Source: Bacteroidota bacterium (lineage in GTDB: Bacteria; Bacteroidota; Bacteroidia; Flavobacteriales; Flavobacteriaceae). Taken from it: 16,840 nucleotides of DNA. The translations under genes and the position numbers were made by a program. Position 1 is the first letter of the stretch. The number at the start of each line of letters is the position of its first letter. The stretch lies in assembly GCA_015767395.1 (NCBI GenBank), contig JADWMI010000020.1, forward strand, positions 1-16,840. The letters are read 5' to 3'. Below are positions 2,887-16,840 of this stretch, in pieces. The notes under the pieces are model-generated. The model was given only the letters and a program-made list of their open reading frames with translations. It was not told the DNA's origin and did not search any database.

Positions 2887-4143
2887 TTATAAACCGAAAG
2901 CTTCTTTTACTTTAGCTACATAATCTAGTTTTTCCCAAGTAAATAACTCAACATCAACTACTTTTTCAGTACCATCAACATTTCTAAATGTTTTTTGAAC
3001 TGTTTCGTTTTTACGACCCATATGTCCGTAAGCAGCTGTTTCCGAATACATTGGTTGGCGCAATTTTAATCGATTTTCAATGGAAGCAGGTCGCATATCA
3101 AATAGTTGTCCAACTATTTCAGCTATTTCACCATCAGCTTTATCAACATTTGAAGAGCTGTTTGTATTTACATAAATCCCCATTGGTTCAACAACACCGA
3201 TAGCATAAGAAACCTGAATTAAAATTTCATCAGCAACACCTGCAGCAACCAAATTTTTTGCAATATGACGTGTAGCATACGCAGCACTTCTGTCAACTTT
3301 ACTTGGATCTTTTCCTGAAAATGCACCTCCACCGTGTGCGCCTTTTCCTCCGTATGTGTCAACAATAATTTTTCTTCCTGTTAAGCCGGTATCTCCATGA
3401 GGTCCACCAATAACAAACTTACCAGTTGGATTTACGTGATACACAATATTATCATTAAACAATGCTTTTATTTCTGTAGGTAATTTTGCAATTACACGCG
3501 GGATTAAAATTTCGATAACATCACTTTTGATTTTAGCTAACATAGCTTCATCATTAGGACCAAAGTCATCATGTTGTGTAGAAACAACAATATCTTTTAT
3601 TCTAAATGGAACATTATCATCTGTATATTCAATGGTTACCTGACTTTTAGAATCTGGTCGTAAATAAGTAATTTCTTTATTTTCTCTTCGCAAGGCTGCC
3701 AATTCCACTAAAATTAAGTGACTTAAATCCAAAGCCAAAGGCATATAGTTTTCAGTTTCATTGGTTGCATAACCAAACATCATTCCTTGATCACCTGCCC
3801 CTTGTTGTTCTTTTGATTCACGGTCAACACCTTGATTAATGTCTTGAGATTGTTCATGAATTGCAGAAAATACACCACATGAATTTCCATCGAACATATA
3901 TTCGCTTTTTGTATAACCAATTTTATTGATAACATCTCTGGCTATTTTTTGTACATCTAAATAGGTTTTAGATTTTACTTCTCCTGCCAAAACAACTTGA
4001 CCAGTTGTTACCAAAGTTTCACAAGCTACTTTTGAATCTTTATCAAATGCTAGAAAATTATCAACCAATGCATCTGAAATTTGATCAGAAACTTTATCTG
4101 GATGACCTTCCGAAACAGATTCGGATGTAAATAAATATGACAT
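2887..4143 (-). CDS. metK: S-adenosylmethionine synthase
   Basis: MetK (methionine adenosyltransferase) joins methionine and ATP to make S-adenosylmethionine, the cell's main methyl donor, in the cytoplasm. The family signatures are clear: [11 protein letters not shown] at residues 11-20, the [12 protein letters not shown] motif at 115-126, and the phosphate-binding [16 protein letters not shown] loop at about 271-286. The length of 418 residues is longer than the roughly 384 of E. coli; such lengths are usual in Bacteroidota. The start ATG at 4141-4143 gives the conserved [16 protein letters not shown] opening. The gene appears to be transcribed alone: a terminator for galE lies upstream, a promoter and a SAM-II-like riboswitch occupy its leader, and the shared terminator at 2831-2865 follows. 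This suggests feedback control by its own product. Confidence 0.97.
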
Positions 4144-4167: not shown

Positions 4168-4269
4168 AAGAGAAGAATAAGGTTGATTGCTATAGTCGCT
4201 AAAAGGAGTAAGTAATTACTGCTTTAGCATTTTTTAATGAGGTTGCAATCAGTTCAAATTCTTCCTCTT
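4168..4269 (-). promoter_or_regulatory. Alternative 'anti-aptamer' fold in metK leader
   Basis: On the transcript strand, four nested helices can form between the riboswitch and the RNA just after it: 4258-4269 with 4168-4178 (11 bp, one bulged G), 4245-4250 with 4185-4190 (GATTGC/GCAATC, perfect), 4223-4228 with 4198-4203 (GCTAAA/TTTAGC, perfect), and 4216-4220 with 4207-4211 (AGTAA/TTACT, perfect). They use the same bases as the aptamer helices, so the two folds exclude each other. I infer an expression platform. No U-rich terminator is seen, so the output may be on translation or RNA stability. The fold has not been computed. Confidence 0.5.
4218..4267 (-). promoter_or_regulatory. SAM-II-like riboswitch in metK leader
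   Basis: Read on the minus strand, the leader has the order of motifs of the SAM-II (metA) riboswitch: a P1 5' strand (GAGG, 4267-4264), a loop with AATTTGAACTGATTGCAA, the P1 3' strand (CCTC, 4242-4239), an A-rich linker, then TGCTAAAGCAGT. Pseudoknot P2 can form by GCA (4246-4244) with TGC (4229-4227) and ACTG (4253-4250) with CAGT (4221-4218). The known SAM-II fold has the same ATTGCAA loop end and GCTAAA segment. P1 is short at 4 bp. The location before metK, whose product is the ligand, supports the call. I compared it from memory with the family, not with a covariance model. Confidence 0.7.
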
Positions 4270-4282
4270 GAATTTTGAGTTG

Positions 4283-11782: not shown

Positions 11783-13327
11783 ATGTCTATTGAGCAAAAA
11801 GATGCGCTTTTCACCTTAGTTAAGTCCCTTTCCAAATCAGAAAAGCGGCAATTTAAGCTTTATGTTGGCCGATTGGGAGGCAATGTTGACGCCAATTTTA
11901 TGTCGTTATTTAATTTGTTAGATAAAGTTTCAAGTTATAATGATGAACTTATATTGTCAAAAACAAATATTAAGAAGCAGCAAATATCCAATACAAAAGC
12001 CCATTTATATAAACAAATTTTAGTGAGTTTACGCTTTAACCCTGTGCATCATAATTCGAAGGCTCAAATTAGAGAGCAATTTGATTTTGCGTCTATTTTA
12101 TATAGTAAAGGGTTATATAAACAAAGCTTAAAAATATTAGATAAAGCGAAGGAATTGGCTTTAAATAATGATGAAAATAACTTGGCCTATGAGATTGTTG
12201 AGTTTGAAAAAATTATTGAATCTCAATATATTACTCGAAGTATGAGTAATAGAGCCGATAAGCTTTCTGAGCAGGCAAAAGAACTTAGTTTAAGAAATGT
12301 AAGAACCAGTAAATTATCAAATCTTTCTTTACAATTATATAGCCTGTTATTAAAACAAGGCTATGTAAAAGATGAATCAGATTCTAGACTTGTTAATGAA
12401 TATTTTGAAAAACGTTTACCTAAATTTAAGTTGTCGGAACTTGGTTTTATGGAAAAACTTTTTTTATTCAAGGCTCATTTATGGCGAAGTTTAATTTTAC
12501 AGGATTTTGTTTCTAGTTATAAGTATGCTCAAAAATGGGTTGATTTGTTTGGAGGCTACCCTGAAATGAAAAAACAAAATCCAGTTTTTTATTTAAAAGG
12601 TTTAAATTATTTATTAGAATCGTTATTCTTAATACGTCATAAATCAAAATTCAAAAAGGTACTGGAAAATTTTAAAAAGGATATTGACAATGGAAATATT
12701 TTATTAAATGAAAATACACAAACCTTAGCCTTTTTATACTACAACCAGAATAAATTGAATTCGTATTTTATTGATGGTAAATTTACCGAAGGCCTACGTT
12801 TTATTCCTACTTTGTTGTCAGATTTAGAATCTTATAAAGCAAAAATAGATGCGCATCATATTATGGTTTTTTACTATAAAATTGGTTGCATGTACTTTGG
12901 AGCAGGTGAAAATGAATCTTGTATTGTTTATTTAGAAAAAATAATTAATAATAAAGATTTAAAAATGCGAGAGGACTTATTGTGTTTTTCACGCGTTTTA
13001 AATTTGGTAGCACATTATGAGGCTGGTATCGACTATAATATTGAAAAGCTAATTGTTTCAACCTATAAGTTTTTGTTGAAAATGGATGATTTACATGATG
13101 TTCAACGAAAGATGATTGCTTTCCTTAAAAACCTAAGTAATATTTATCCTCAAGATTTACGGAAAGAATTTATAAAATTACATGCAGAATTGATTAAGTA
13201 TAAAGATCATCCTTATGAAAAAAGAGCTTTTTTATATTTAGACATCATTTCATGGCTAGAAAGCAAAATCCAAAATTTATCTGTTGAACAAATTATTCAA
13301 CAAAAAGAAAAAAATAAATTTCATTAA
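11783..13327 (+). CDS. Unrecognised helical-repeat protein, TPR-like
   Basis: I do not recognise this 514-residue protein. It has no signal peptide, no long hydrophobic segment and no catalytic motif I can name, so it is likely cytoplasmic. It is rich in Leu, Lys, Asn and Tyr. Several stretches look like paired amphipathic helices of TPR type, for example FASILYSKGLYKQSLKILDK (about 101-120), AHLWRSLILQDFVSSYKYAQ (about 233-252) and MVFYYKIGCMYFGAG (about 361-375). The N-terminus (SIEQKDALFTLVKSLSKSEK) is charged and helical. The gene is divergent from leuA and precedes the ilv leader on the same strand, with no terminator of its own before it. An adaptor or regulatory scaffold is possible, but the sequence does not show a function. 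Confidence 0.8.
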   Translation: MSIEQKDALFTLVKSLSKSEKRQFKLYVGRLGGNVDANFMSLFNLLDKVSSYNDELILSKTNIKKQQISNTKAHLYKQILVSLRFNPVHHNSKAQIREQFDFASILYSKGLYKQSLKILDKAKELALNNDENNLAYEIVEFEKIIESQYITRSMSNRADKLSEQAKELSLRNVRTSKLSNLSLQLYSLLLKQGYVKDESDSRLVNEYFEKRLPKFKLSELGFMEKLFLFKAHLWRSLILQDFVSSYKYAQKWVDLFGGYPEMKKQNPVFYLKGLNYLLESLFLIRHKSKFKKVLENFKKDIDNGNILLNENTQTLAFLYYNQNKLNSYFIDGKFTEGLRFIPTLLSDLESYKAKIDAHHIMVFYYKIGCMYFGAGENESCIVYLEKIINNKDLKMREDLLCFSRVLNLVAHYEAGIDYNIEKLIVSTYKFLLKMDDLHDVQRKMIAFLKNLSNIYPQDLRKEFIKLHAELIKYKDHPYEKRAFLYLDIISWLESKIQNLSVEQIIQQKEKNKFH

Positions 13328-13334
13328 ATAGTCT

Positions 13335-13361
13335 TTTGTTTAAATATTTTTTACATATTTG
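13335..13361 (+). promoter_or_regulatory. Possible promoter of ilv leader transcript
   Basis: TTTG (13335-13338) and CATATTTG (13354-13361, one mismatch to TAnnTTTG) are separated by 15 nt, somewhat short for the consensus. Transcription would begin near 13368, giving a leader peptide start codon only about 5 nt from the RNA 5' end. Confidence 0.45.
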
Positions 13362-13372
13362 TAGCCAATAAG

Positions 13373-13444
13373 ATGAAACAATTTATTATCAATATTATTA
13401 TAATTCGTGTCTCTGTGATTATTTCACAAGAAGATCGGGAATAG
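13373..13444 (+). CDS. Ile/Val-rich leader peptide of the ilvDB attenuator
   Basis: This ORF of 23 codons plus TAG encodes 8 Ile and 2 Val, with no Leu. Residues 5-6 are Ile, residues 8-11 are four Ile in a row (codons ATT ATT ATA ATT), Val is at 13 and 15, and Ile at 16-17. It lies directly before a hairpin terminator and upstream of ilvD-ilvB, whose products make Ile and Val. This is the classic form of a leader peptide whose translation senses charged tRNA-Ile and tRNA-Val. I infer that stalling at the Ile codons allows read-through into ilvD. The peptide itself is not expected to have a function. Confidence 0.8.
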   Translation: MKQFIINIIIIRVSVIISQEDRE

Positions 13445-13500
13445 TATTGTGTTTTTATAAATCAATAAAGCCTTCCTGATTAATTTTAGGGAGGTTTTTT
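13434..13500 (+). terminator. Attenuator: antiterminator and intrinsic terminator before ilvD
   Basis: The terminator stem is CCTTCCT (13471-13477) with AGGGAGG (13488-13494), 7 bp with one G-T wobble, extended by A-T pairs at the base and followed by T6 (13495-13500). The competing antiterminator pairs ATCGGGAA (13434-13441) with TTCCTGAT (13473-13480), 8 bp with one wobble, and so uses up the terminator's 5' arm. The upstream strand overlaps the last codons of the leader peptide, so a ribosome that reaches the TAG covers it and lets the terminator form. A ribosome stalled at the Ile codons leaves it free. A small 5-bp hairpin (13414-13418 with 13424-13428) could act as a pause signal. Confidence 0.78.
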
Positions 13501-13514
13501 ATTTTAAAGCAATT

Positions 13515-13568
13515 ATGACAATCAATAAAGTAAAAATCATCATTTTAACACAAGTCATTATAGCATAA
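13515..13568 (+). CDS. Possible second Ile/Val-rich leader mini-ORF
   Basis: A 17-codon ORF begins 14 nt after the attenuator's T run. It encodes 6 Ile, 2 Val and 1 Leu, including three Ile then Leu at residues 8-11 and Val-Ile-Ile at 14-16. It has no strong ribosome binding site. A and T-rich DNA favours Ile codons, so chance is a real alternative. Its stop overlaps a short stem (13555-13561 with 13565-13571), but no close, convincing terminator follows. It may be a second leader peptide acting in tandem. Confidence 0.35.
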   Translation: MTINKVKIIILTQVIIA

Positions 13569-13705
13569 TGAATTGAAGCATGTTTTTTTATTGAATAATC
13601 ATTGTAAAAAAAAGAGCGATAACACTTTGAAGAACAGAGATATAAGTAATATATAGTTGATGTGACTATTGTAAAAAAAGCAAATGAAAAAACTATAAAA
13701 CAAAT

Positions 13706-13761
13706 ACCTAAATTAAATTTGACACTTATTACGAATTAAGTGCCTAAAGTTAGGTTGTTTT
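13706..13761 (+). other. Competing stem-loops just upstream of ilvD
   Basis: Within the untranslated stretch 13569-13799, two nested helices can form: ACCTAA (13706-13711) with TTAGGT (13750-13755), enclosing CACTTA (13723-13728) with TAAGTG (13737-13742). A local alternative pairs CCTAA (13743-13747) with the same TTAGG and is followed by TTGTTTT, like a weak terminator. The rest of 13569-13799 is AT-rich with a repeated ATTGTAAAAAAA (13610 and 13668 regions); I see no further gene there. Confidence 0.4.
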
Positions 13762-13799: not shown

Positions 13800-15482
13800 A
13801 TGCAATTAAACAAGTATAGTAAAAGAGTAACACAAGATCCAACACAGCCTGCTGCCCAAGCAATGCTATATGCTGTTGGGCTTTCTGATGAAGATATGAA
13901 AAAACCTCAGGTAGCTATTGCAAGTACTGGTTACGATGGTAATCCTTGTAATATGCATTTGAATGGTTTGGCTTCAAAAATTAAAGAAGAGGTAAATAAA
14001 CAAGATCAAATTGGATTGATTTTTAATACTATTGGGGTAAGTGATGGTATTTCAATGGGGACATTGGGAATGAATTATTCATTGCCTTCTCGTGATGTTA
14101 TTGCTGATTCTATAGAAATTGTAATGAACGCACAAAGTTACGATGGTTTGGTTACTGTTGTAGGTTGCGATAAAAATATGCCAGGAGCAATTATGGCAAT
14201 GTTGCGTTTAAATAGACCTTCATTAATGGTATATGGTGGTACTATTGCTTCAGGACGCTATAAAGGAAAAAAATTAAACATTGTTTCTGCTTTTGAGGCT
14301 TTGGGTCAAAAAATAGCAGGAGATATTTCAGAAGAAGAATATAAAGAAATTATTAAGAATGCAATACCAGGCGCAGGTGCCTGTGGAGGAATGTACACTG
14401 CAAATACAATGGCTTCATCAATTGAAGCACTAGGGTTTGCCTTGCCTTACAATTCATCTATTCCTGCAGAAAACCCTCACAAGGAAAATGAAAGTGAGCG
14501 CATTGCTGCAGCTATCAAAAATTTATTAGAGTTGGATTTAAAGCCATTAGATATTATTACTAAAAAATCGTTAGAAAACGCGGTTGCTTTGGTAAATGCT
14601 TTAGGTGGCTCAACCAATGCAGTTTTACATTATTTAGCAATTGCACATGCTGCTGAAATCGATTTCACATTGGAAGATTTTCAACGTGTAAGTGATAGAA
14701 CACCTTTAATTGCTGATTTAAAGCCTAGTGGTGAATACTTAATGGAAGATGTTCATGGAGTAGGTGGTACACCAGCAGTGATGAAATATTTATTGGAAAA
14801 AGGCTTTTTACATGGTGATTGTATGACAATTACTGGTAAAACATTGGCTGAAAATTTAGCTGATGTAAAAGCATTGAGTTTTGAAGAGGATCAAAAAGTA
14901 ATTCATACAACTGAAAAAGCATTAAAACCATCGGGAAATCTTCAAATATTATACGGAAATTTAGCTACTGCAGGTTCAGTTGCAAAAATTAGCGGTAACG
15001 AAGGGAATTTATTTGAAGGAAAAGCTGTGGTTTTCAATAGTGAGCAAGAAGCCAATGACGGAATAGGAGCAGGTAAAGTTTCAAGAGGTGATGTCGTTGT
15101 AATCCGTTATGTGGGTCCAAAAGGAGGTCCGGGAATGCCAGAAATGCTAAAACCAACTTCAATGATTATGGGCGCTGGTTTAGGAAAATCTGTAGCTTTA
15201 ATTACAGATGGACGTTTTTCAGGTGGAACACACGGTTTTGTAGTAGGTCACATTACACCCGAAGCACAATCAGGTGGGGCTATTGGATTGGTAAAAGATG
15301 GAGATGTTATTGTAATTGATGCTGACAATAAAACCATTAACGTGAAAATTTCAAATGAGGAATTGGCAGAGAGAAAGTCAAGATGGGTTGAACCAGCTTT
15401 GAAACATACAAAAGGAATATTATATAAATACGCTAAAACCGTTTCTTCAGCTTCAGAAGGTTGTGTAACGGATAAATTTTAA
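13800..15482 (+). CDS. ilvD: Dihydroxy-acid dehydratase
   Basis: IlvD removes water from dihydroxy acids to give the 2-keto acid precursors of isoleucine and valine, using an iron-sulfur cluster. The 560-residue protein has the three cluster cysteines of the family, C50 (GNPC), C123 (VGCDKNMPG) and C195 ([12 protein letters not shown]). It also has SDGISMG (81-87), [22 protein letters not shown] and [11 protein letters not shown] with the active-site Ser. The related phosphogluconate dehydratase differs in length and in these segments. ATG 13800 has an AAAAGGA sequence (about 13784-13790) at a good distance, an unusually clear ribosome binding site for this window. It lies downstream of an Ile/Val attenuator, and ilvB follows after 4 nt. 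Confidence 0.97.
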
Positions 15483-15486
15483 ACCA

Positions 15487-16840
15487 ATGGAGACATTAAA
15501 AAAAGAAGGTTTAGAAGTGAAAACTTCAAAAACTGTAAGAATAACGGGTGCAGAAGCAGTAATTAAATGTTTACTTGAAGAAGGAGTAGATTTGGCTTAC
15601 GGATATCCTGGAGGCGCTATTATGCCTGTTTATGATGAGATTTATAAATATCAAGATAAATTTCACCACGTATTAACACGTCATGAACAAGGTGCTATTC
15701 ATGCAGCGCAAGGGTTCGCACGCGTAACTGGTAAAGTTGGGATGGTTTTTGCAACTTCAGGTCCAGGAGCAACAAATTTGGTAACCGGTATTGCTGATGC
15801 CCAAATTGATTCTACGCCTTTGGTTTGTATTACAGGTCAGGTAGCATCTCATTTATTAGGTTCTGATGCTTTTCAGGAAACAGATATTATTGGTATTTCA
15901 ACGCCAGTTACAAAGTGGAATTATCAGATTACCAAAGCTTCTGAAATTCCTGAAATAATAGCAAAAGCTTTTTATATTGCAAAATCAGGCCGTCCAGGTC
16001 CAGTTTTAATAGATATTACAAAAGATGCACAGTTTGGTGAATTGGATTTTTCATACAAAAAATGTGAAAAAGTTAGAAGTTATAGAGCAATCCCTAAATT
16101 TGATATAGAAAAAGTAAAAGGAGCGGCAGCATTAATTAACTCGGCTAAAAAACCTTTTATTGTTTGGGGACAAGGTGTTATTCTAAGTGGAGCAGAGCAA
16201 GAGTTTAAAAATTTTATTGAAAAAACTGATATTCCCTCGGCCTCTACAGGCTTAGGTCTATCGGCTTTAGAAACAGCGCATCCGTTAAATGTTGGGATGG
16301 TTGGTATGCACGGTAATTATGCACCAAATGTATTGACCAATTCTTGTGATGTTTTAATTGCCATTGGAATGCGCTTTGATGATCGAGTTACTGGTAATTT
16401 AGCTGCCTATGCAAAGCAGGCAAAAGTAATTCATTTTGAAATTGACCCAGCTGAAGTTGATAAAAATGTTAAAACAGATGTTGCGGTTATAGGAACTGTT
16501 AAAGAAACATTGGTTGAAATAATGCAATATGTAGACAAAGCAGACCGTAAAGAATGGATGAAAGAATTTGATAAATTATATCAAATAGAAAAAGATCAGG
16601 TAATTAACGATCAGTTAAATCCTTCAAAAACAGGCTTAACAATGGGTGAAGTTTTAGGCGGAATTAACAAGGAAACTAATGGTGATGCTGTAATCGTTTC
16701 TGATGTTGGTCAGCACCAAATGTTTGCTTGGCGTTATGCCGAATTCATTAAAACGAGAAGTAATGTAACTTCCGGAGGTTTAGGAACTATGGGTTTTGCC
16801 TTACCAGCTGCTATTGGAGCAAAAATGGGCGTTCCAGAAC
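15487..16840 (+). CDS. ilvB: Acetolactate synthase large subunit (3' end outside window)
   Basis: This ORF starts at ATG 15487, 4 nt after ilvD, and stays open to the window edge, giving 451 of an expected 570 or so residues. The enzyme uses thiamine diphosphate and FAD to join two pyruvates, or pyruvate and 2-oxobutyrate, for valine, leucine and isoleucine. Visible signatures are GYPGGAIMPVYD (39-50), the catalytic Glu67 in RHEQGAIHAAQGFAR, TSGPGATNLVTG, the DAFQETDIIGIS segment, FAD-region GMVGMHGNYAPN and GMRFDDRVTGN, and the start of the C-terminal cofactor domain (SDVGQHQMFAWRY, then GLGTMGFALPAAIGAK). The metal-binding GDGSF-type motif lies beyond the window. A short N-terminal extension of about 15 residues precedes the first domain. 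The small subunit ilvN and ilvC probably follow. Confidence 0.96.
   Translation, partial: METLKKEGLEVKTSKTVRITGAEAVIKCLLEEGVDLAYGYPGGAIMPVYDEIYKYQDKFHHVLTRHEQGAIHAAQGFARVTGKVGMVFATSGPGATNLVTGIADAQIDSTPLVCITGQVASHLLGSDAFQETDIIGISTPVTKWNYQITKASEIPEIIAKAFYIAKSGRPGPVLIDITKDAQFGELDFSYKKCEKVRSYRAIPKFDIEKVKGAAALINSAKKPFIVWGQGVILSGAEQEFKNFIEKTDIPSASTGLGLSALETAHPLNVGMVGMHGNYAPNVLTNSCDVLIAIGMRFDDRVTGNLAAYAKQAKVIHFEIDPAEVDKNVKTDVAVIGTVKETLVEIMQYVDKADRKEWMKEFDKLYQIEKDQVINDQLNPSKTGLTMGEVLGGINKETNGDAVIVSDVGQHQMFAWRYAEFIKTRSNVTSGGLGTMGFALPAAIGAKMGVPE

What the first reader, a model, noticed from the sequence alone, without database searches (positions are those of the whole stretch)
13373..13444. Ile/Val leader peptide upstream of ilvD in a Bacteroidota-type genome
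The sequence shows a 23-codon ORF with 8 Ile (four in a row) and 2 Val but no Leu, placed before a terminator and the ilvDB genes. Ribosome-mediated attenuation is best known in enteric and related bacteria, so a complete example here deserves attention. The codon mix suggests that it senses Ile and Val rather than Leu, although ilvB and ilvD also feed leucine synthesis.
Basis: partly seen in the sequence, partly recalled or inferred. Interest (0 to 1): 0.8.

Follow-up and report, generated by a model that had tools for sequence, protein, structure and literature searches.

The report
Twin leader-peptide attenuators before ilvD
The small isoleucine/valine-rich reading frame in front of the branched-chain amino acid genes looks like a real amino-acid sensor, and it is the first half of a two-stage sensor found in many flavobacteria, whose second half seems to have lost its off-switch in this genome.

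Summary
Observation confirmed: 13373-13444 encodes MKQFIINIIIIRVSVIISQEDRE, then comes an intrinsic terminator, then ilvD-ilvB, in a Lutibacter-like genome. The leader is conserved (model hits 33 of 38 Lutibacter genomes, 26 of them used to build the model). Sequence around its stop codon is complementary to the terminator's 5' arm, so a ribosome at the stop should hide the antiterminator strand and one stalled on Ile/Val codons should leave it free.

A second Ile/Val-rich leader (13515-13568) starts 16 nt after the terminator stem. In 12 of 38 Lutibacter genomes, 11 of 103 other Flavobacteriaceae ilvD regions and 2 further loci, leader 2 has its own terminator with a different pairing word (UGAUACAG against CCUGUAUCA); in 26 of 32 such units the leader's stop codon is the first codon of the word. 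The window lost that terminator arm by a deletion of about 45-50 nt. Tandems lie on both sides of the deepest split of the IlvD tree: probably old, repeatedly lost.

Single leader-peptide attenuators were already suspected in flavobacteria; I found no report of this tandem. No expression data; covariation is not above shuffles; a possible internal promoter at -86 could bypass the system.

The parts
13354..13361 (+). probable -7 promoter box of leader 1 (CATATTTG; flavobacterial consensus TAnnTTTG with one departure)
   Evidence: sequence; consensus from PMC9723704 (passage); a TTTG lies 4-45 nt before the start of the first leader in 80 of 99 loci (shuffled mean 26.3), median 10 nt; no well-placed -33 element was established
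13373..13444 (+). leader 1, MKQFIINIIIIRVSVIISQEDRE*, unit 1
13433..13441 (+). antiterminator word of unit 1 (GATCGGGAA, codons D-R-E just before the stop)
   Evidence: 9 consecutive pairs (2 of them G-U) with 13473-13481 by inspection; paired in the MFE of the nascent leader when the ribosome is upstream
13467..13498 (+). terminator 1 (13-bp stem, 6-nt loop, then TTATTTT)
13473..13481 (+). part of terminator 1's 5' arm and loop (TTCCTGATT) that pairs with the unit-1 word
13515..13568 (+). leader 2, MTINKVKIIILTQVIIA* (6 Ile, 2 Val, 1 Leu), unit 2
   Evidence: model R1 matches 13515-13594 with 49.8 bits, E 8.4e-8 for the 651 bases searched
13569..13594 (+). remnant of unit 2's terminator: end of the 3' arm and T-tract; the 5' arm is deleted (47 model positions absent between leader and T-tract)
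   Evidence: folding 13510-13640 is no better than shuffles (z 0.17)
13714..13721 (+). TAAATTTG at -86 from ilvD, possible internal promoter box downstream of both units
   Evidence: TAnnTTTG at -110..-60 in 34 of 38 Lutibacter/Lutimonas regions against 4.5% of shuffles; no TTG at the expected spacing in 33 of those 34
13800..15482 (+). ilvD, dihydroxy-acid dehydratase
15487..16839 (+). ilvB, acetolactate synthase large subunit (runs off the window)

Best explanation
The finding is unit 1 of a tandem pair of ribosome-mediated transcription attenuators in front of the ilv operon. Transcription starts just before leader 1 (inferred, about 5-7 nt of 5' UTR). When Ile- and Val-tRNAs are charged, the ribosome runs to the leader stop codon and covers the antiterminator word that overlaps or abuts it, so the terminator hairpin forms and transcription stops. 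When Ile or Val is short, the ribosome stalls upstream, the word pairs with the terminator's 5' arm, and RNA polymerase continues. In intact tandems it then meets a second leader that repeats the test with a different word (UGAUACAG:CCUGUAUCA), so full expression needs passage of two gates in series; with both closed, leak-through would be the product of two small numbers (inferred). In the window, unit 2 has lost its terminator arm, so only unit 1 should still regulate. Shown by sequence: the ORFs, terminators, complementarity, conservation, tandem order, deletion. Inferred: translation, stalling, termination, the series behaviour.
For: Unit 1 is conserved: strong R2 hit in 33 of 38 Lutibacter genomes, 7 not in the training set. 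In leader 1 the synonymous share of single-nucleotide codon differences is 0.449 in frame against 0.291 and 0.086 in the other frames. A unit detector found units in 75 of 141 ilvD upstream regions and in 0 of 137 shuffled ones. Best complement of the terminator 5' arm lies within -6..+14 of the end of the stop codon in 108 of 121 units, mean -9.5 kcal/mol; shuffled arms 63%, -6.0; arms of the other type 57%, -6.2. Nascent-RNA folds: ribosome stalled on an Ile/Val/Leu codon leaves the arm paired upstream in 1121 of 1203 cases, ribosome at the stop in 4 of 121; with the arm shuffled 828 of 1203, with the word shuffled 675 of 1203. Tandems: 12 of 38 Lutibacter genomes, unit 2 directly downstream of unit 1 on the same strand, 2 of the 12 outside the training set; 11 of 103 other Flavobacteriaceae regions; 2 more in L280 and L281. 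The promoter-like TTTG precedes first leaders (80 of 99) but not second leaders (4 of 22, shuffled 6.3), so both leaders should share one transcript. Window unit 2 is recognised by the model and lacks the arm.
Against: No expression, ribosome-profiling or 3'-end data. Covariation of the word-arm helix is not above shuffles within Lutibacter, because both strands are nearly invariant. Positional preference for the stop codon is partly compositional: shuffled arms also prefer it 63% of the time, and arm-shuffled folds still pair upstream in 69% of stalls. With no ribosome the MFE is the antiterminated state in 53 of 87 type-1 and 18 of 32 type-2 units, so a protector hairpin as in trp is not generally present; if translation of the leader is poor, repression would fail. 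Leader 2 shows no excess of third-position variation (8 rows). A conserved TAAATTTG at -86 may be an internal promoter that bypasses both units. 49 of 103 family regions have no unit by my detector.
Confidence: 0.82

Rival explanations
1. A single ordinary Ile/Val attenuator; the second ORF in the window and in relatives is incidental or a non-functional duplicate.
For: In the window unit 2 has no terminator and its region folds no better than shuffles. About as many Lutibacter regions have only unit 1.
Against: Unit 2 has its own terminator and its own matching word in 25 loci, the same word outside Lutibacter, constant start-to-start spacing of 123-167 nt in the 22 tandems measured, and 12 of 103 family regions have a type-2 unit alone, so type 2 is kept on its own.
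Confidence: 0.12
2. The terminator hairpins are not regulated by translation; leader ORFs are by-products, and ilvD is driven mainly by a promoter at -86 with other control.
For: TAAATTTG sits at a fixed distance before ilvD in 34 of 38 regions, downstream of both terminators.
Against: It explains neither the conserved Ile/Val frame nor the complementarity between stop-codon region and terminator arm. The box has no TTG at the expected spacing in 33 of 34 regions.
Confidence: 0.08
3. A tRNA-binding T-box or a ligand-binding riboswitch rather than ribosome-mediated attenuation.
For: Both regulate BCAA genes elsewhere (established knowledge).
Against: Rfam at gathering thresholds finds only a SAM-II riboswitch at 4214-4273 in the window. 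The conserved element is a short reading frame, not a structured aptamer.
Confidence: 0.02

Closest known systems
Enteric ilvGMEDA / trp-type ribosome-mediated attenuators (recalled; trp described in PMC3641672 section 11, read)
   Same: Short leader rich in the regulatory amino acids, intrinsic terminator, mutually exclusive antiterminator, upstream of the cognate biosynthetic operon.
   Different: Here the antiterminator word overlaps or abuts the leader stop codon, a protector hairpin is not predicted in most units, the 5' UTR before leader 1 is probably only a few nt, and in many relatives two such units stand in series.
Salmonella mgtCBR tandem attenuators (PMC3641672; abstract and section 11 read)
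   Same: Two leader ORFs in one leader mRNA, each controlling transcription elongation.
   Different: mgtM/mgtP respond to ATP and proline and their hairpins do not resemble intrinsic terminators; here both leaders are Ile/Val-rich and each has an intrinsic terminator with its own antiterminator word.
mefA/msrD operon, two ribosome-mediated attenuators (PMC10314930; passages seen)
   Same: Two leader-peptide attenuators in one operon, intrinsic terminator at msrDL.
   Different: Macrolide-induced stalling, and the second attenuator controls msrD alone, downstream of mefA, not in series before the first gene.
Flavobacterium psychrophilum leader-peptide attenuation candidates (PMC9723704; passages seen)
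   Same: Same family; 'strong clues' for leader peptide attenuation upstream of amino-acid biosynthesis operons.
Bacteroides thetaiotaomicron 5' UTR sORFs (PMC7366714; passages seen)
   Same: Short ORFs in long 5' UTRs described as reminiscent of attenuation leaders in the same phylum.
   Different: Not tied to ilvD in the passages seen, no tandem described.

Membership tests
Ribosome-mediated (leader-peptide) transcription attenuator | short ORF with clustered codons of the regulated amino acid | tested here: met
   8 Ile + 2 Val of 23; 1 of 2000 shuffles gives such an ORF; conserved in relatives
Ribosome-mediated (leader-peptide) transcription attenuator | intrinsic terminator between leader and first gene | tested here: met
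   13467-13498; 12-pair consensus terminator in 27 sequences
Ribosome-mediated (leader-peptide) transcription attenuator | antiterminator that excludes the terminator | tested here: met
   word-arm pairing 89.6% of cells in A1 against 29.7-61.5% when slid; folds. Covariation not above shuffles
Ribosome-mediated (leader-peptide) transcription attenuator | cognate biosynthetic genes downstream | tested here: met
   ilvD, ilvB
Ribosome-mediated (leader-peptide) transcription attenuator | leader is translated under selection on its frame | tested here: inconclusive
   synonymous share highest in frame for leader 1 and leader 2, but leader 2 has no third-position excess; no ribosome data
Ribosome-mediated (leader-peptide) transcription attenuator | starvation for the amino acid raises read-through | not testable with these tools
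   needs experiment
trp-type three-hairpin attenuator | protector (1:2) hairpin that keeps the terminator state without translation | tested here: not met
   without ribosome the MFE leaves the arm paired upstream in the window and in 53 of 87 type-1 and 18 of 32 type-2 units; MFE test only. The full-length fold does show a hairpin over leader codons and the stop region once the terminator is complete
Tandem attenuators (two units in series before the first gene) | two leader ORFs, each with a terminator, on one transcript | tested here: not met
   window: unit 2 lacks the terminator arm. Met by sequence in 25 relatives; shared transcript only inferred from promoter placement
T-box riboswitch | T-box covariance model match | tested here: not met
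   Rfam gathering scan of the window lists only SAM-II

The most novel reading that the evidence does not exclude
The ilv operon of the flavobacterial ancestor carried two transcription attenuators in series with separate pairing words, one usually built on a UGA stop codon and the other on UAG, acting as a two-gate multiplicative switch on Ile/Val supply; individual lineages then shed one gate or the other, and the window is caught shortly after losing the second gate's terminator arm.
Probability: 0.55. Interest if true: 0.72.

Novelty: new variant of a known kind. Interest (0 to 1): 0.6.

Why it matters
Leader-peptide attenuation is a textbook mechanism worked out largely in bacteria that use Shine-Dalgarno initiation. 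[quoted passage not shown] Natural single-unit and broken-unit relatives, including this window, give ready comparisons for asking what a second gate adds: lower leak, a steeper response, or a different amino acid.

Tried and rejected
Recent duplication inside Lutibacter as the origin of unit 2: rejected as the simplest view once the same two terminator words turned up in tandem outside the genus and on both sides of the deepest split of the IlvD tree. Caveat: rows of that tree were chosen (40 fetched genes of 104 regions, 26 loci and the window), it rests on one protein, and 19 of 64 inner branches are weak; independent gains are not excluded.

Covariation as proof of the antiterminator: counted on A1 and A2, not above shuffles. 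Observed single cases: the window's word/arm pair changed at two places (one U-A to C-G, one A-U to G-U) relative to the consensus, with the stop moved two codons downstream; L101 has UAA instead of UGA with a matching arm change.

Strict orthogonality of the two words: supported only in part. Own pairing is stronger than cross pairing in 38 of 44 comparisons, means -9.7 and -4.8 kcal/mol; word 2 hardly pairs with arm 1 in most tandems, but word 1 against arm 2 is as strong or stronger in L001, L002, L005, L016 and L207, and L015 is a tie.

Leu sensing by leader 2: leader 2 has more Leu than leader 1 in tandems (1.73 against 0.73), but the Leu codon of Lutibacter leader 2 lies in a predicted hairpin arm, so it may be kept for pairing. 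Left open.

A leader before leuA (11632, minus strand): the 150-nt gap was read and no obvious unit was seen by eye; no detector was run on it.

Exact pattern search for unit 2: 5 of 395 genomes of the order and 2 of 395 of the class (both already among the 5), reversed-pattern control 0. All 5 places lie upstream of ilvD. The exact pattern misses most known type-2 units, so it says little about absence. Wider orders were not surveyed by other means.

Literature: searches (open-licence library only) gave no tandem amino-acid attenuator in front of a biosynthetic operon; of the 49 papers only 30 were listed. Attenuator predictions in Bacteroidetes/Chlorobi by Vitreschak et al. 2004 are recalled, not seen.

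Full report
What is in the window. The ORF at 13373-13444 reads MKQFIINIIIIRVSVIISQEDRE*: 8 Ile with four in a row, 2 Val, no Leu. A 13-pair terminator-like hairpin follows at 13467-13498, then a 301-nt stretch to ilvD (13800-15482) and ilvB (15487 onward), both named by NCBIfam models above cut-off. An ORF this rich in Ile+Val arose in 1 of 2000 shuffles of the intergenic region; leader plus terminator fold better than all 200 shuffles. IlvD is 95% identical to that of a Lutibacter MAG; the window's own genome is not held.

Conservation of unit 1. Among the 80 ilvD loci, the pattern MK..I.NIIsI.VSVIISQ recurs upstream of ilvD in Lutibacter and related genera. A covariance model of 27 such units (R2) hits 33 of 38 Lutibacter genomes with E at most 4.3e-10; 26 of these are training sequences, 7 are not. 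In leader 1 the synonymous share of single-nucleotide codon differences is 0.449 in frame against 0.291 and 0.086 in the other two frames, and the third codon position varies most.

Mechanism. The region around the leader stop is complementary to the terminator's 5' arm. In most Lutibacter it is UUAGGAA (the stop UAG inside it) against UUCCUAA; in the window it is GAUCGGGAA (13433-13441) against UUCCUGAUU (13473-13481), with the stop two codons later. Across 121 units (120 distinct), the best complement of the arm lies within -6..+14 of the end of the stop codon in 108, mean -9.5 kcal/mol. Controls: shuffled arms 63% and -6.0, arms of the other type 57% and -6.2, so the position is partly compositional and the pairing strength is the better evidence. 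In A1 the word-arm helix is formed in 89.6% of cells, against 29.7-61.5% when slid by 1-3 columns; covariation does not exceed shuffles. Folding the nascent RNA with the ribosome footprint removed: stalls on Ile/Val/Leu codons leave the arm paired upstream in 1121 of 1203 cases, a ribosome at the stop in 4 of 121; arm-shuffled 828 of 1203 and word-shuffled 675 of 1203. In the window the switch point lies at codons 17-19: stalls at codons 2-17 give the antiterminator, 19 onward do not. Without a ribosome the arm is paired upstream in the window and in 53 of 87 type-1 and 18 of 32 type-2 units, so translation to the stop, rather than a protector hairpin, seems to be what permits termination. This is inference from MFE folds.

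The tandem. Ten of the 80 loci have a second leader plus terminator about 138 nt downstream of the first (L004 by its GTG start and by eye). A model of these ten (R1) gives strong hits (E at most 5e-9) in 12 of 38 Lutibacter genomes, each directly downstream of unit 1 on the same strand; ten are training sequences, G011 and G017 are new. In a family survey, 109 of 149 genomes had IlvD at E at most 1e-180; I fetched 104 upstream regions, 1 was empty; the other 5 genomes were two Lutibacter already held and three contig ends. Of 103 usable regions the relaxed detector finds no unit in 49, type 1 alone in 24, type 2 alone in 12, another terminator word alone in 7, and two units in 11 (nine type 1 + type 2, two variant + type 2). 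Two of these 103 regions repeat loci. The strict detector found 0 units in 137 shuffled regions. Two more tandems came from the pattern search (L280, L281). That makes 25 loci, besides the window.

Unit 2. Its word is UGAUACAG or a near form against CCUGUAUCA; in 26 of 32 strict type-2 units the stop codon (UGA, rarely UAA) is the first codon of that word. In 22 tandems measured, start-to-start spacing is 123-167 nt and leader 2 starts 9-47 nt after terminator 1. A promoter-like TTTG precedes first leaders in 80 of 99 loci (shuffled 26.3; median 10 nt to the start codon) but second leaders in only 4 of 22 (shuffled 6.3), so both leaders probably share one transcript with a very short 5' UTR. 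Own word-arm pairing beats cross pairing in 38 of 44 comparisons (-9.7 against -4.8 kcal/mol), but word 1 pairs with arm 2 about as well in several Lutibacter.

The window's unit 2. Model R1 matches 13515-13594 with 49.8 bits although 47 model positions, the whole 5' arm of terminator 2, are missing; the alignment with four intact relatives shows the gap, and the region folds no better than shuffles. L109 (another Lutibacter) has unit 1 and a different remnant of unit 2. Whether the deletion is real or an assembly matter cannot be checked here.

History. On an ilvD DNA tree of 32 rows the tandems need two changes against the rows labelled as other groups; 17 unlabelled single-unit rows were not counted, and several of them lie inside the tandem clade. 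On an IlvD protein tree of 67 chosen rows the four states need 18 changes (shuffled mean 30.1), and tandems occur on both sides of the deepest split. The economical reading is an old tandem with repeated loss of either unit; repeated gain or transfer is not excluded.

Caveats. No expression data. A TAAATTTG box stands at -86 of ilvD in nearly all Lutibacter (34 of 38 regions with such a box at -110..-60, against 4.5% of shuffles; those 38 include three Lutimonas-type loci), so part of ilvD transcription may bypass the attenuators.

Known and new. Leader-peptide attenuation upstream of amino-acid operons was already noted for F. psychrophilum (PMC9723704, passages) and hinted at in B. thetaiotaomicron (PMC7366714, passages), so unit 1 alone is a new member of a known kind. 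Tandem leader attenuators are known from Salmonella mgtCBR, called a singular example by its authors (PMC3641672, abstract and section 11), without intrinsic terminators, and two attenuators exist in mefA/msrD with a gene between (PMC10314930, passages). Two intrinsic-terminator leader attenuators in series before a biosynthetic operon, with different stop-codon words, I did not find in the searches; supplements and subscription papers were not searched.

Noticed in passing
window 4214-4273 (-): SAM-II riboswitch (65.2 bits, cut-off 44) upstream of metK (2887-4143, minus strand; TIGR01034), found by the Rfam scan.
   Followed up: no
window 13714-13721: TAAATTTG at a nearly fixed distance (-84 to -86 in most) before ilvD in Lutibacter: possible internal promoter downstream of both attenuators; the stretch ATAATCATTGTAAAA after terminator 2 is also conserved and unexplained.
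   Followed up: partly
L129:749-876 and L124: Histidine-rich leaders in Lutibacter genomes: L129 reads MNFTQIHHHHFHSRTQVS before a terminator and hisG (TIGR00070); L124 has a similar His run read by eye on the other strand. Attenuation of his seems to exist in the same genus.
   Followed up: partly
window 11783-13327 (+): 514-aa protein before the leader; weak match to the BT2802 family model, far below its cut-off (109.6 of 550 bits). The same C-terminal reading (YLDIISWLES) recurs before ilvD in many Lutibacter and Lutimonas loci.
   Followed up: no
L109:1520-1740: A second Lutibacter genome with unit 1 intact and unit 2 reduced to the end of its terminator, by a different loss from the window's.
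   Followed up: partly
L071, 176 nt before ilvD: Cyclobacterium xiamenense has MFLLVSVVVLIVIII before a GC-rich terminator upstream of ilvD: a possible BCAA leader outside Flavobacteriaceae with other words.
   Followed up: no
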